Made by a program: the position numbers and the translations under genes. 64,000 nt of DNA. Source: Tilletia caries (Eukaryota; Basidiomycota; Exobasidiomycetes; Tilletiales; Tilletiaceae). The stretch covers positions 1,054,001-1,118,000 of the forward strand of contig JALUTQ010000040.1 of the NCBI GenBank assembly GCA_032718865.1, read 5' to 3'. The notes under the pieces were generated by a model that was given only the letters and a program-made list of their open reading frames with translations, was not told where the DNA came from and searched no databases. This document shows positions 28,491-45,356 of this stretch, piece after piece. How positions within the stretch are numbered: the stretch's first letter is position 1; every line of letters starts with the position of its first letter.

Positions 28491-29058
28491 TCCGCTTTGA
28501 TGCCTACAATTCCACTCAGTAAAATATAAAGAGCCATGCAAATTATAAAGCAGGACAAGGAGCAGGAGCTCCTCCCCCATGGCACCATCCCACATTCCCA
28601 CCTCTCCATCATGCCAGCAGAGCACGTTCATTCTCCGCCCGACGACGTGTCGGCGACTCATCAGTAGGAGAGGTCACGAGTTCACGACCAAGGGGACGCC
28701 CATATGGACGCGCAGCGCGCTTATTTCCTCCAACTGGCAAAGGCTCGAGAACAAGAAATTCTATTCCCCGAACGGCCGAACTCTTTAGGCCCTGTCCAGT
28801 TGCGACTTGCGAGCGCCCCCACTTTGAAAAATGAGCGCGCGCTCTGCGGGCCGACATTAGGGCAGTTCACGCGTCGTGAAAAATCCACTCCCAGAGCCGC
28901 CCATTTCTGCCCATTCTCGCCCAGATCCGCCCAAACCCGCCCAGAAAGTCTGATGAAGAATGGACTCGGCGGGTCGATTTTGACCCGCCCAGTCACTCCC
29001 ATTTCATCCAGTGATCATTATGATGCATATATGACAATTTTTTGGGCGATGTCATATA

Positions 29059-29626
29059 CACTGCCAATCGTCCATGAAGAACTGGGGATAGTCCTCAGCA
29101 CGACACGTGAGGATCATCCTCGACGATATCGTGCGATCATCCTACAACCCTCGTGGGATCCACGAGATCTGAGGAGATCCTCAGATAAATGAGCACCGCC
29201 TGGCATATTTTTGTACAACGTTATTATTTCTCAACACCAGGTCCTAATTGAGCGCGTCAGCCAGCATTTGAATCATCCCCATGCCCTGGATTCGTGTTTC
29301 CAAAATTATGTGACATTATATTATTTTGAACTGGAAATGGTTACTATGTGCTGCGGCGCTCGTGGTTTAGTGGTAACACCGCTGGATTTCGAAAAAAAAG
29401 TCCCGGGTTCGAATCCGGGTGTGAGTATTTTTATTTTTTCCCCTCATTTTTTCTCATTTTTTGGAATTTCTGAGGATGATCGTGGGCTTACCATCTCGTG
29501 CAACTCTCAACGATTGAGCCCAAAATGATCGTGGGAAATCCTGGGTCGGGTTAGCCTCACTCAGCCTCACGATGATCCTGCGAGATCCTCGCGATGGGTG
29601 AGGATCCTCGCAGCCGACTGGCAGTG
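29059..29626. mobile_element. Tc1/mariner-type MITE nested in the hAT MITE
   Basis: 568 bp with TIR CACTGCCARTCG (29059-29070 and, inverted, 29615-29626) flanked by TA on both sides (29057-29058, 29627-29628). Subterminal palindromes (GAGGATCATCCTC, CTGAGGAGATCCTCAG) fold back on themselves. It carries a tRNA-like segment in its middle. Confidence 0.75.
29356..29428 (+). ncRNA. tRNA-like pseudogene inside the MITE
   Basis: A box TGGTTTAGTGGT and B box GGTTCGAATCC are at the right spacing and the T stem CCCGG/CCGGG pairs, but with an 8-nt loop. The acceptor arms pair poorly and the anticodon arm contains a run of eight A. Not a functional tRNA; possibly a retained pol III promoter. Confidence 0.45.
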
Positions 29627-31595
29627 TATCTGCATTATGACAATCTAGTTTTGGGAAGGCGATGTCATATATATGCATTATGCAAATGTCATTTTTCTGT
29701 CATATGAAGTCATAAAATTGTCATATTTCTGTCATATTTCTGTCATATTACGTAAGCAAACTTTCCGCCTCTGAGTAGACCGTAATATCGCGTGGCGAAG
29801 CGCGTCTCGCCATGTGGTGAACCGCGAAGCGCGTCAAGCCGCGTCGCCGCGTTCCCTCTTTCAGGTTGGCGCAGTTTTTACCTCATATCCAGCCATCCAG
29901 AACAGGCGCGTGAATCTTGCTGCGGAACATGTAACATGTTGGGAGCCATCTTGAGCTCCGGAGCGTTTTTATTTTTGTATCGGGAGAAGGGGCAGGGCCC
30001 AGGGGGACGCCGGAGACACGGAAGATGCCAAAACGCTTAATTTTATTCTGAAAATGCCAGGCACTCGGCGCCTGAGCGGTGAGCCTGACCAGAATTTAGA
30101 GCTCAGGTCATATAAAATGTCAGATTTGCCAAGAATATGACATGATTATGCACGACCATATGACAGAATTATGCATCTTTTTTCGGCCCGGCTGTGGACG
30201 TTTTGTCAGAATACTGTCATACATAAGGCATATGTTCTGCATTGTCATATGACAGAATATGACAGAATTTAGGGCGGGAAAATTATGTCATATTTCTGTC
30301 ATAAAGCTGTCATATGACAGCCACGGGAGGCATTATGGCCATAAATATGACAATGAGACTTTGTCATAAACCTGTCATATGACTATGACAGTTTTCTTGT
30401 CATAATTCTGTCATATGCATAATATGACTTCATATGTATGACAAATGGTGATGATCACTGATTTCATCCCAATCCTCGCTCATTCACTCCCAGTCACTCC
30501 CAGTCACTCCCAGAGCCGCCCAGACCCGCTGAGCCACTCCGGCAAGATTCTGAGTGGTGAAATGAAATAATTTGCCAAAAATGTTTGCATGAGCTGTGGT
30601 TCGATCCCACGAGTGTACAACTGTGTCTACCACTGTACTAAACCAAGGTTTGTACATTTAGCCACCCATTTGATAAAATATAACCGCTTGCAATTGACAG
30701 TTTTCTCGGCATGGACTGGCCTCGCCACGCCTTCGTGAGGGCTCAAAGGCTAGGTTCAATCCAGGTTTGCACTCGCAGTAAAAGGTGCAACACTCCCCAG
30801 AACTTATTTACAGGCGTTTTTATCATCTACAAGGTGCTGCGCTACGAGAAGAAGACAGTGCTTTCGCGCAGTCGTTGCGGTGGTTCTGGGCGGATGTTGG
30901 TTCTCGGCGGGTCTCGGCGGGTTTGAGCGAGGATGGGCGGCCAAAAATGGCGCAAAAGCCTGACGCGTGAACTGCCCTATTGTGCTGGCAGGTAGCCAGT
31001 GACTAAGGCGGTGTTCAGTTGAAGGGCCTGATCAGTATCAAGCCCGCGGGCTTGCGTGCGGGCTTGAGTGGGCCAGAGAAATCAAAATGAGATTTGGCAT
31101 GCAGTCTGCAGACCCGGGCAGACCCGGGGAAAATGAACAAACAGGAGTCAGGAACTCAGGACACGGGCTTGGATTCCACATGATCATTGCAAGAACTATG
31201 ATCGCGTGTTGTGCCACGCGTCGCGCTGTCGCGCACCCGCGCACCGGCGCACCGTGTCGCTTGACTCCTCTTCATCCCACACACACACTCTCTCTCTCTG
31301 ATGCTGATCTCTCACACCGCTCCCACACCATCTTTCATATAAGGTACGTATCATGTTTATGTGATGCATTGGGCCTTCTTCCTGCTCGTTCTGAAGAATC
31401 TGACCTGCGCTTTCTCTTACCTTGCAGCTCTCCATCACATACACGATCCAGCACGTCTCCCTCCTCGTGGGCCGTGACCTTGCCCGGCTTTCGTCGCTCT
31501 TCTCTCCCCCGCCCTCGCGCGTTGGTGAGTACCCTCCTCCCCCCTTCTCTGTGTCGTGACTCGTGGCTGTGGCGGTCTTGTGCGGGAGTCAGAGG

Positions 31596-41293: not shown

Positions 41294-41359
41294 CTTGACT
41301 GGATGATGGGCCCAAGCAACGACGAGAGCTGGGATGAGTGTCTGGTGTTGAGACTCGAC

Positions 41360-42043
41360 CAGGGCTCGGCTCCGACTATAGTCGCACGTTTTTTGGCATA
41401 GTCATAGTCGTAGTCGTAGGCGTTTTTTGAAAATTCAAAATAGTCATAGTCGTAAGTCTGACTATAGTTCCATAGTCGACTATAGTCGCAGGCTTTTGCG
41501 CAGCCAAATTTTGCACTATAGTGTGACTATAGCCAAAATTGTAGCGCCTGTGCGCCACTATAGTCGGACTTTGGGACAAATTTTTTTGCACTATGGTTGC
41601 ACATGAAATTTCAGACTATGATGAGTTACAGTGTAGGTCGCCTTCCATTGCCGAAAATTGGACATAGTCGAACTTAGGTTCGACTATCCAACAATAATAG
41701 TCGCACTATGACTGGCTATAGTGTTTCATGGGCAATGGTTGTCATAGTCTAACTATAGCGGTGGCGGTTGGGCCTACGGCTATAGTCGCAACTCCGAGCT
41801 ATAGTCAGACCATGACATACTATAGTCGGACTATAGCCGAACTGCTTGCTGCGACTATAGCCTTGACATCCAGCTATTGTCCGACACTCCGACTATATTT
41901 GCAAAATCAATTTTAGACCAGATTTTTGACGACTATGGCGACTATTGTCTTACATTTTCTGGAGCATAGTCATAGTCATAGTCATAGTCGTATGAGGCTA
42001 TAGTCGTAATAGTCGTAAAATTCCATAGTCGTGCCGAGCCCTG
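41360..42043. mobile_element. hAT-type MITE with CTATAG(TCG)-word interior
   Basis: 684 bp with TIR CAGGGCTCGGC (41360-41370 and, inverted, 42033-42043). The exact 8-bp target duplication GACTCGAC lies at 41352-41359 and 42044-42051. The interior consists of dozens of scattered ACTATAGTCG/CATAGTCGTAG-type words in both orientations. Non-coding. It inserted about 60 bp upstream of the Crypton start codon. Confidence 0.85.
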
Positions 42044-42278
42044 GACTCGACCTCCTCTCCCTCTCTCTCCTCTCTTTCTCTCGCTTTCTGTGTCTCTTCG
42101 TAACGATCCAACTGTACAGTTTCCTTAGGAAGTCTAATCTCCAGCATTAGAAATTTGTAGGGCTTCGCTGCGCGGCTCTCGTTGGTTCGTTATTAGAAAA
42201 CTGTAAGGACTCGTCAATGGACTAAGTCCGGACACACCCAGTCACCCCAATTGATAATTGTCAGGTATCAGTACCTTG

Positions 42279-42925
42279 CAGTGTTGAACATACTATTGGA
42301 GTATGGAGTATTCCTATATACTATAGTATATATACTATTTGCAAAAACATACTATATAGTATATACTATCGGGTCCCGGGAGAATTTTTTTGGAAAACTT
42401 ACTATATACTATTTCAAAATATGGCGGAGGTTATAGTATACTATAGTACCAATTTTAATCCGCGACCCCGAGCACGTCGTCTCAAAGTACTATAGTATAC
42501 CCATAGTATACTATACTCCCTGAAAGCTATACTATACTCCTACGATTAACGATAGTATAAACTATAAATTAGCACTATAGTATACATATACTCATCAGTA
42601 TACTAAAATACCTCCAATTATACTATACTTCTACGATACTATATGGTAGTACTGTAGTATGTGCCTGGATTGCGTTTGAGAAGGAAGTATTTAAGTATTA
42701 TACTACTACTACAGTATGATGGAAAATTTGCGCATGCTATAGTAGTAATATCATAATACTATAGTACTACCCCTTTTGGCCTTGGAGTATAGTAGTATTA
42801 TAGGAAATACTACCATACTATCCTATCCTATATACTACCTTCGCCCTCCCGACGACCAAAGTTAGTATGGAGTATACTACCCGAGCCCCTGAAAACAGTA
42901 TACTATAGTATAATGTTTAACACTG
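42279..42925. mobile_element. hAT-type MITE with TATAGTATACTAT-word interior
   Basis: 647 bp with TIR CAGTGTTRAACAT (42279-42291 and, inverted, at 42913-42925). The exact 8-bp target duplication GTACCTTG lies at 42271-42278 and 42926-42933. The interior is a dense field of ATAGTATACTAT and ACTATAGTA words. Non-coding. Confidence 0.85.
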
Positions 42926-43628
42926 GTACCTTGTACTCAATGAATGACGTGTCCTCGCATCTCGGAATCCTACTCACCTTTGTCGTATCGAACCTTGAGA
43001 CCGCGATGGCGTTCGTGTAGTTGGTTGAGTAGGTAACCTGAGGATGAAAGACAGGGAGTGAGGGAGGGAGAGAACGATGGATGATGAGTGTCGAGTACCA
43101 GGCTGAGACGGAATTGATGTCAATCTACTCACAACAACGGAATCCTGCGGTCCTGTGACTTGAGGAGACCCGCGCCATGTTGCCACCATGCTGGTAACAC
43201 TATTCCTTACAAGCAGGTTGTGTCGACGCCAGTGCAGGACCCGAAGCGGAACAGCAACCCTCCAACTGTGGGTCTGCGTTCTAATCCAAACACTGGCGTC
43301 TGGCGCGCACAACGCTACGGCAAGGATGTGAAACCAGAGGCGGCAATGATAGGCAGCAGGCGGTTGACCGTTGACGGTTGTGTGTTGTACCTGGCGTGAT
43401 TGATCATTGATGTATGGGTGATGGTCAAATTACTGAGCTGCTGATGCCAGGAAGGAAGGAGTAAGAAGTCTGAGTCTCGTAACTGAGTTCGGAGACGAGA
43501 GTCTGATGAGTGATGTCTCATGCTTGAGGCAATGGCAGTGAATAAATTTGTCTTCTGTGCGTAACCACCACCACCACACACACCAACACCGTCTCGCCGT
43601 TTGCGCTCGCGTCTGAGCTCTTTCCATC

Positions 43629-44398
43629 ATGGTGGATGGAAAAGCGAGGCGCTTGCGCCGAATTGCAGGACGCGCAAAGCGACGAGAGGACCAGGGTCAG
43701 CCTCCCTATGAGCCTCCAAAGACTGGTCCTGAGGCACCGAACCCCTGGACGTTCAGACGTCCTTCCGCGAGAACGCGCAGGCGAATAGCCAAAAATTGGC
43801 TGACAAAAATCATTCCTCATAGTCGCAGGAGCAAAGTTGCCAAGGTCCGGGTGCTGTGGGCACTGGCACGCGCAGTCAAATCAACAGGACGGGGGGGAAC
43901 AACGAAGCATGTCGGTGCCACAGCTCCTCAGCAAACACGCAGCCCAAATCGGTACATAGATGACGAGGTGGAGGTCAGCGGATCGGACTCTGGAGATGAG
44001 GCGGAACGCGAGCACAGAGGGGAGGAAGTGACTGCGGCGGGTAATCTGCGAGGGTTCGTGGTGCAAGATAGAGCCCACAAATTGAACAAAGTTGGGCAAT
44101 GCATGCAAACAGCCAGGTGAGTATTGCCAATTGTCATCTTGGACAGCAGAGCCTCAGTTATCGTCATTAAATTAATTGACTCGTTTTGTTTGTTTGTCAA
44201 AGTCTGCGACCGGGTGCATCGGCAACGCAGCTTTCGCGGGCCTCGCAGCGAGCTGACGTCCACGACCGGCACGTTCGAGAAGTTCAGGATGCGCTCAGCG
44301 TATTCCAACCCAGCGCAAGGTACCATCACTGGGAGGATCGAGTTCCGAGGACAGCTACTCAGCGGGCACGACAAAGAAGGCTTGGTCTCATCGAGTAG
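43629..44398 (+). CDS. Hypothetical basic protein
   Basis: Exons 43629-44116 and 44203-44398 joined by a GTGAGT...AAAG intron in phase, giving 227 aa. The N-terminus is strongly basic (MVDGKARRLRRIAGRAKRRE, RRPSARTRRRIAKNW), then an acidic SGSDSGDEAEREHRGEE, then a short C-terminus ending RARQRRLGLIE. No domain recognised; composition suggests a nucleic-acid-binding protein. It lies between two hAT MITEs and converges on the decayed Harbinger copy 3, so it may be that element's accessory gene by analogy with copy 1. This is inference only. Confidence 0.45.
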
Positions 44399-44720
44399 CT
44401 ATCCGTCTCAGTTCTTTTCTTTGCTTACCCTCTCTTCAGTTGTTTGTGTCCACTGCCCCGGAATCTCAACAGTTGGCTGTCAGAGTCGATCTCGGATACC
44501 AGGGAGTAGGGACTGAGACGCACGCAAAATTTCGGTATGGGGTTTGTGTCAGTTGCTTGATGAGGGAGCGGACAGTGGACGAGGCCAGGCGAACCAGTCA
44601 TGTAGGGCCAACGGGCCTTGTAAGTTGGAGGTTCAACGACTGGAGCCTGAATGGGTAGAGAGTGCGCCAAAAGGGGGAACGGTGAATATACTAATGCTTT
44701 TTCCAGGTTCAACGGATGAC

Positions 44721-45356
44721 CAGAGGTCGGCGTGGGTATGGGTACATCTTGGGTATACCCAGTACCTACCCTGTGGGTACAGGTACGGTATTGGGTATGG
44801 GGTCCGCTATACCCAAGAGGTTGGGTATTGTGGGTATGACCTGAGTATACCCACCATACCTGACTTGTACCCACCTTATACCCATCTGGACGTTCTTCCT
44901 GGTATACGCAGGTATAACTTGGGTATACGCAGGTATATCTTGGGTACACGTAGGTATAAGCTGGGTATACGCAAGTATAATCTGGGTATGCACAGGGTAT
45001 TCCAGGTATACACAGAGTATTGCTTGGGTATACTTGCGTATACTTGAGTATAATTATGGAATGCAGGGTATACGGTATACCTACGTAAAGGTGTACAAGC
45101 TGAGTATGTGTACAATAAAGGTCAGACGCCAGACAAGATGGGTATACCTAGGTATACGTGAATATACCCGGGTTCAACGCAGGTAAACGTAGGCAAACAC
45201 AGTCTAAAAATGGCCAAAAATCGGTTGATTACATAAGCAGGTATACCCTGGGTATACCCTCGGGTATGGGTATGGGTCTCGTCGAAAAAAAGGGTATACC
45301 CTCGGGTATGGGTATGGGACCCCAAATACCCAATACCTAACCCATGCCGACCTCTG
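44721..45356. mobile_element. hAT-type MITE with GGTATACC-word interior
   Basis: 636 bp with TIR CAGAGGTCGGCRTGGGT (44721-44737 and, inverted, 45340-45356). The exact 8-bp target duplication CGGATGAC lies at 44713-44720 and 45357-45364. The interior is made of GGGTATACC, AGGTATA and TTGGGTATAC words in both orientations. Tyr/Cys/Val/Pro-rich ORFs through it are artefacts of the repeat. Confidence 0.85.

What the first reader, a model, noticed from the sequence alone, without database searches (positions are those of the whole stretch)
41360..45356. Three neighbouring hAT-type MITEs, each filled with its own palindromic-core word
41360-42043, 42279-42925 and 44721-45356 are each bounded by an exact 8-bp target duplication (GACTCGAC, GTACCTTG, CGGATGAC) and a CAG-starting TIR, and have near-equal length (684, 647, 636 bp). 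Their TIRs and interiors do not resemble each other. Each interior is a field of one short word in both orientations with a self-complementary core: CTATAG+TCG, TATAGTATACTAT, GGTATACC. The boundaries are sequence facts and hAT-type TSD length is established. The idea that hAT MITEs here repeatedly acquire or amplify a private palindromic word (by binding-site selection, replication slippage or as structured transcripts) is inference and may be undescribed.
Basis: partly seen in the sequence, partly recalled or inferred. Interest (0 to 1): 0.88.

Follow-up and report, generated by a model that had tools for sequence, protein, structure and literature searches.

The report
Jumping-gene stubs packed with binding sites
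Three short parasitic DNA elements in a fungal genome are each packed end to end with one short mirror-image word of their own, the same word that flanks the transposase gene of the full-length jumping gene that most likely moves them, so each word is best read as that transposase's landing site.

Summary
All three elements have exact 8-bp target duplications and CAG-type inverted ends, and belong to multi-copy families: 34 of 44 copies checked have a perfect duplication. Five copies have paralogous empty sites with a single target. Word density far exceeds shuffled controls. A fourth such element lies at 29009-30460.

Each family has a longer hAT partner whose end matches it (91/87% at both ends for element 3; one end each for elements 1 and 2). 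In the partners the same word flanks a transposase gene with a hAT dimerisation domain and a BED-like CCHC finger. Best reading: the words are subterminal half-sites for the transposase finger, often paired back to back, and the MITEs are little more than binding-site fields. Inherited changes avoid the word more than private ones do, a moderate signal. Sister transposases (48-54% identical) carry altered words.

Limits: binding is inferred; palindromes are not universal; many hATs here show no field; two partners' 3' ends were not found. Subterminal repeats are known for Ac, Hermes and Kat1: a new variant of a known kind. Host: most likely the Tilletia caries group.

The parts
41352..41359 (.). 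left target duplication GACTCGAC of element 1
   Evidence: exact match to 42044-42051
41360..42043 (+). element 1: 684-bp hAT MITE, TIR CAGGGCTCGGC, half-site ATAGTCG, palindrome CGACTATAGTCG
   Evidence: 40 places scored of 171 candidates, full-length rows 85-100% identical; word statistics
41360..41533 (+). part of element 1 (1-174) shared with the 5' end of hAT elements at C27 (L092, 92%) and C33 (L093, 84.5%)
42044..42051 (.). right target duplication of element 1
42271..42278 (.). left target duplication GTACCTTG of element 2
42279..42925 (+). element 2: 647-bp hAT MITE, TIR CAGTGTTGAACA, half-site ATACTAT, palindrome ATACTATAGTAT
   Evidence: 40 places scored of 81 candidates, 22 rows cover 1-647
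42737..42925 (+). part of element 2 (459-647) shared at 93.7% with the 5' end of the hAT element in L059
42926..42933 (.). right target duplication of element 2
44713..44720 (.). left target duplication CGGATGAC of element 3
44721..45356 (+). element 3: 636-bp hAT MITE, TIR CAGAGGTCGGC, half-site ATACCC, palindrome GGGTATACCC
   Evidence: 40 places scored of 45 candidates, 10 rows cover 1-636
44721..44862 (+). left end of element 3, 90.8% identical to the 5' end of the 5,086-bp hAT in L055
44901..45033 (+). 21-bp tandem array of the word inside element 3 (6.3 copies); TRF finds no 21-bp array in L055
45239..45356 (+). right end of element 3, 87.3% identical to the 3' end of the hAT in L055
45357..45364 (.). 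right target duplication of element 3
29009..30460 (+). fourth TSD-bounded hAT-like element in the window (TSD ATTTCATC, TIR CAGTGATCAT, word GTCATATGAC), with what looks like a nested insertion

Best explanation
The three elements are non-autonomous hAT transposons (MITEs) moved in trans by their own hAT transposases. Each word is the half-site read by the N-terminal BED-like zinc finger of the cognate transposase; two half-sites back to back give the palindrome, which two fingers could occupy together as in Hermes. In the full-length element the half-sites form sections at the two ends around the transposase gene; the MITE has lost the gene and kept, and in element 3 enlarged, the fields. 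Copies that keep many good half-sites are mobilised more often, so the word is maintained by selection at the transposition step, and different families show different words because their transposases read different sequences. Shown here: boundaries, families, partners, word fields in the partners, finger motif, tandem arrays in two cases. Inferred: binding, cooperation on palindromes, and the transposition advantage.
Against: No binding was measured. Pfam's zf-BED is below its cut-off in el3 (13.4 against 20.6 bits) and not listed for el1, el2 or the sister; the sister has DBD_Tnp_Hermes below cut-off (17.5 against 20.5). The 3' TIR of the element-1 and element-2 partners was not found within two mismatches in the stretches held, so a match at both ends is shown only for element 3. 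No clean empty site was found for element 1 or for the three window copies themselves. The selection signal weakens with stricter controls: random 5-mer masks themselves give a median OR of 0.63, and 3.4% reach the observed 0.39; shared alleles of elements 2 and 3 alone are not significant with the union mask (p 0.27, 0.10), and element-3 singletons are also low in words (ratio 0.41-0.45, p 0.07-0.11). Gaps are more frequent in words than outside in elements 1 and 2 (0.0183/0.0019, 0.0339/0.0092) though not in element 3 (0/0.0020). By a 6-mer criterion 26 of 65 hAT 3' flanks (65 of the 74 hits) show a field, at least two of those because a MITE lies next door; 39 do not, including five with open frames of 1,150-1,197 aa (L048, L054, L062, L066, L072).
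Confidence: 0.83

Rival explanations
1. The words are a by-product of replication slippage: simple-sequence-like arrays grow inside MITEs without function.
For: 21-bp array in element 3; a 39-bp unit 5.4 times in L078, where the sister L059 shows only arrays of 11-33 bp in its fields; more gaps in words than outside in elements 1 and 2.
Against: TRF arrays cover only parts of the elements and words stand in both orientations (22/11, 17/24, 16/32); the same word occupies the ends of the partner hATs; inherited substitutions avoid words.
Confidence: 0.1
2. The elements are kept for the structure of their transcripts or single strands (hairpin RNAs, small-RNA precursors).
For: RNA folding z-scores of -11.1, -5.9 and -11.2 against dinucleotide shuffles (20 each).
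Against: Scrambling words and TIRs removes most of the stability (z -11.5 to -14.3), while shuffling the spacers costs little (z -2.0 to -3.4), so folding largely follows from words present in both orientations. In the L058 field the word is 12 to 1 in one orientation, and el3 sisters have non-palindromic words. Compensatory changes were not tested.
Confidence: 0.04
3. The words bind a host protein (for example a transcription factor) and the MITEs spread its sites.
For: Palindromic 10-12 bp sites resemble transcription-factor sites (recalled, not tested).
Against: Outside the family GGGTATACCC is not above the reversed control (10 against 14); the families differ in word; in element 1 singletons, mostly post-insertion changes, are not significantly fewer in words (ratio 0.75-0.98, p 0.15-0.49); the partner hATs carry the same word at their ends.
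Confidence: 0.03

Closest known systems
Ac/Ds of maize: AAACGG subterminal repeats (PMC3260210, passages seen)
   Same: Short hexamer repeated in the ends, bound cooperatively by the transposase; Ds1 and Ds-like elements keep TIRs and hexamers with unrelated filler.
   Different: Here the word runs through the whole MITE (top 6-mer at 38-44 per kb), is often paired as a palindrome, and several families with different words sit in one genome.
Hermes of the house fly: STR1-STR2 quasi-palindrome bound by two BED fingers (PMC10368747, passages seen)
   Same: Half-sites in back-to-back pairs, BED finger, hAT dimerisation region; the L059 transposase model's best fold matches are Hermes.
   Different: In Hermes only two pairs of STRs form palindromes, as the passage says; here the core palindromes number 14 CTATAG in element 1, 7 CTATAG and 7 GTATAC in element 2, 15 GTATAC in element 3; half-sites differ.
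hAT-derived CGG-binding proteins with diverse DNA preferences (PMC8097297, passages seen)
   Same: The paper reports that motifs of four hAT-encoded proteins with zf-BED and Hermes-type DNA-binding domains match the subterminal regions of their own elements: one word per hAT is a known pattern.
   Different: Mostly fish, insects and domesticated genes; no MITEs filled with the word in the passages seen.
Kat1 of Kluyveromyces lactis, a domesticated fungal hAT (PMC4763223, passages seen)
   Same: Fungal hAT with TIRs and a repeated subterminal hexamer (TGAATT/AATTCA) reported as important for cleavage; a non-autonomous target.
   Different: Six exact copies of the repeat in one locus, not multi-copy MITE families filled with it.
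Internal-region MITEs of corals, CMITE (PMC2872659, passages seen)
   Same: Conserved MITE interior suspected to help transposition.
   Different: piggyBac-related, interior shared between families, tandem arrays of whole elements; here hAT, and the interior differs by family.

Membership tests
hAT superfamily | 8-bp target duplication | tested here: met
   34 of 44 copies 8/8, 4 at 7/8, 6 lower; control starts give 0 in the window
hAT superfamily | short TIR beginning CA(G) | tested here: met
hAT superfamily | insertion into a site that exists empty with one TSD copy | tested here: met
   for elements 2 and 3: of 24 joined flanks searched against the loci held, 7 gave junction-spanning paralogues (15 rows); single-target sites for L010, L011, L015 (element 2) and L021, L023 (element 3); L014 imperfect; L002, the only element-1 case, not clean; none for the window copies
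hAT superfamily | related element with a hAT dimerisation domain | tested here: met
   L055, L059, C33:750371 and C27:533419; ends shared
hAT superfamily | N-terminal BED zinc finger in the transposase | tested here: inconclusive
   CCHC motif in five frames of four families, strands and helix predicted in el2, but Pfam zf-BED below cut-off or not listed
MITE derived from an autonomous hAT | short, multi-copy, both ends shared with the longer element | tested here: met
   both ends for element 3; for elements 1 and 2 only one end, since the partners' 3' TIRs were not found in the stretches held, so inconclusive there
hAT subterminal repeats (STRs) | repeated short motif at both ends of the full-length element | tested here: met
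   for elements 1 and 2 the 3' field is seen but its outer end is not
hAT subterminal repeats (STRs) | bound by the cognate transposase | not testable with these tools
   needs a binding assay

The most novel reading that the evidence does not exclude
This genome holds a natural code table: several hAT lineages whose BED-like fingers and half-site words changed together, with MITEs acting as super-substrates that outcompete their parents by enlarging the binding-site field. Reading words against fingers across the genus would give the recognition code of BED fingers and show how a transposase changes its specificity step by step.
Probability: 0.35. Interest if true: 0.72.

Novelty: new variant of a known kind. 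Interest (0 to 1): 0.5.

Why it matters
How hAT transposases change DNA specificity, and why some MITEs spread far better than their parents, are questions that these elements make testable. Several families with different half-sites share one genome, with related transposases whose words differ by one or a few letters, so both can be approached by sequence comparison alone. It also warns annotators that these low-complexity-looking stretches are transposons with exact ends.

Tried and rejected
L056 was first taken as the element-1 hAT: it carries an element-1 end, but read by eye the hAT inside has another word (GGAGATCTCC) and seems nested, so it was dropped. L058 was considered for element 1 because an element-1 TIR lies downstream; its own section has a sister word and it is kept as a sister. 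Helical phasing of words: same-strand gaps of 11 bp are the commonest in L061, L058, element 3 and the 29009 element and second in L059, and a period of 10.5 stands out in L059 (0 of 300 random placements reach it, both strands together), but not in the element-1 and element-2 MITEs, so it is not claimed. Origin of the interiors by local alignment against mononucleotide shuffles: element-3 interior to the inner left field of L055, 36 against 23 (about 40 bp), to the inner right 28 against 24; element 2 (1-400) to the L059 3' field, 53 against 30; element 1 (175 on) to the L061 field, 45 against 27 (reverse 36 against 29), to the inner left of L093, 31 against 29. Shared words alone raise such scores, so no origin is claimed beyond the BLAST-matched ends. 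The Foldseek list itself had no match at E <= 0.001 (best Hermes, E 0.11); the second aligner, working on Foldseek's own candidates, puts Hermes first. The finger was not searched as a model of its own. Sequence search of the el3 N-terminal piece against solved structures gave nothing meaningful. Papers: nine searches, two of which returned nothing, and passages of six papers; in these I saw no description of MITEs filled with a family-specific palindromic half-site, which is no proof of absence.

Controls that cut against the reading: random 5-mer masks, hATs without fields, union-mask results for elements 2 and 3, gaps in words.

Full report
What is there. A scan of the window for 8-bp duplications around CA-starting inverted repeats finds these three and a fourth at 29009-30460, while five other start dinucleotides find none. 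Each is a repeat family: 40 places were scored for each element, of 171, 81 and 45 first-look candidates, so copy numbers are lower bounds. Of 44 copies examined (28, 8 and 8, chosen from the best near-full-length hits), 34 have an exact 8-bp duplication, 4 have 7 of 8, and 6 have fewer; two of the six, L012 and L013, share their flanks. Joined flanks of 24 copies were searched against the loci held and found paralogous junctions for 7; in L010, L011, L015, L021 and L023 the empty site carries exactly one copy of the 8-bp target. L014 is imperfect, L002 is not a clean empty site, and the three window copies gave none.

The words. The top 6-mers occur 30, 28 and 24 times against shuffle maxima of 5, 11 and 8. 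Each is absent or nearly so in the other two elements (0 to 1.5 per kb), with the caveat that elements 1 and 2 share the core CTATAG. Genome-wide the 10-bp palindromes are enriched over reversed controls, 375/21, 517/25 and 47/14, and the listed sites cluster: 45 of 50 near element-1 TIRs, 45 of 49 near another element-2 word, 37 of 47 in element-3 places. The basic unit is a half-site (ATAGTCG, ATACTAT, ATACCC); part of the half-sites pair back to back. Three other TSD-bounded elements behave alike: the 29009 element and L021:862-1458 (both around GTCATATGAC), and L084:1235-1441 (ATACTATAGTAT), the last found by reading. L034:2532-2848 does not, and three elements with CAAGG-type TIRs (L013, L058, L021:268-2248) are weaker or carry nested elements.

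The partners. Element 3 shares its first 142 and last 118 bp with a 5,086-bp element (L055) that has its own perfect duplication and two reading frames, kept apart here: one with the CCHC motif, one with the hAT dimerisation domain; its words sit at the ends. Element 2 shares 190 bp of one end with L059, in which a 1,183-aa hAT frame is flanked by word fields. Element 1 shares 174 bp with L092 and L093, hAT elements whose 3' flanks (L068, L061) carry a field of the same word. The 3' TIR of the element-1 and element-2 partners was not found within two mismatches in the stretches held. L059 shows arrays of 11-33 bp in its fields, its sister L078 (92% identical transposase) a 39-bp unit repeated 5.4 times, so fields can grow by tandem duplication; element 3 has a 21-bp array where L055 has none.

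Selection test. If the word matters for transposition and not afterwards, changes inherited by several copies should avoid words while changes private to one copy should not. For element 1 (28 copies) the ratio of word to non-word rates is 0.33-0.37 for shared alleles (p 0.016, 0.008) and 0.75-0.98 for singletons (p 0.15, 0.49). Pooled, OR 0.38 (p 0.0066) and 0.44 (p 0.0077). Of 1000 random 5-mer masks 0.7% reach the shared fraction and 3.4% the odds ratio. Elements 2 and 3 alone are weak, element-3 singletons are also low, and gaps are commoner in words than outside in elements 1 and 2. The signal is moderate and should be repeated on all copies.

Rivals. Folding is strong but follows mostly from the words. 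Slippage explains some growth, not the shared word at partner ends. A host factor would not explain a different word in each family.

Host. A comparative genomics paper on these fungi counts hAT among its transposon superfamilies, and words beginning 'MITE' and the phrase 'DNA transposon' do not occur in its main text (PMC9172201, passages).

Verdict. Real, exact and well explained by known hAT biology, with an unusual degree of binding-site filling and several different words in one genome: a new variant of a known kind, useful as a natural experiment.

Noticed in passing
window 29009-30460: A fourth TSD-bounded hAT-like element (ATTTCATC; TIR CAGTGATCAT; word GTCATATGAC). Its interior holds what looks by eye like a nested TA-flanked element, about 29059-29626, with CACTGCCA ends and a tRNA-like stretch near 29355-29425; ARAGORN finds no tRNA there.
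   Followed up: partly
L094 (C3:416836-418900): A tandem array with a unit of about 1.85 kb carries an exact 29-bp copy of the left end of element 2 at both unit positions seen; similarly spaced CAGTGTTGAACA matches recur on C1, C3 and C5, so part of that TIR count comes from tandem arrays.
   Followed up: partly
L056, L085, L087, L089; L042, L029, L033, L080: hAT flanks with fields of GGAGATCTCC-type or CTCCGC-type words: further word types in the same genome.
   Followed up: partly
L084:1235-1441: A 207-bp TSD-bounded element (GTTAGCAT) with the element-2 word but a different TIR (CAGTGATGC/CAGTGGTGC).
   Followed up: partly
C3:1866233-1872596: Three element-1 TIR pairs, each spanning about 1.77 kb, follow one another, flanked by ordinary-length copies, as if element 1 sits inside a duplicated or nested stretch.
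   Followed up: no
L015:2264-2521 against L002 flanks: The site aligned to the L002 insertion point carries extra bases resembling an altered double target, possibly a hAT excision footprint.
   Followed up: no
C21:1100331, 1120183, 1140042: Three hAT dimerisation hits of equal score (59.7 bits) spaced about 20 kb apart, suggesting a 20-kb tandem duplication.
   Followed up: no
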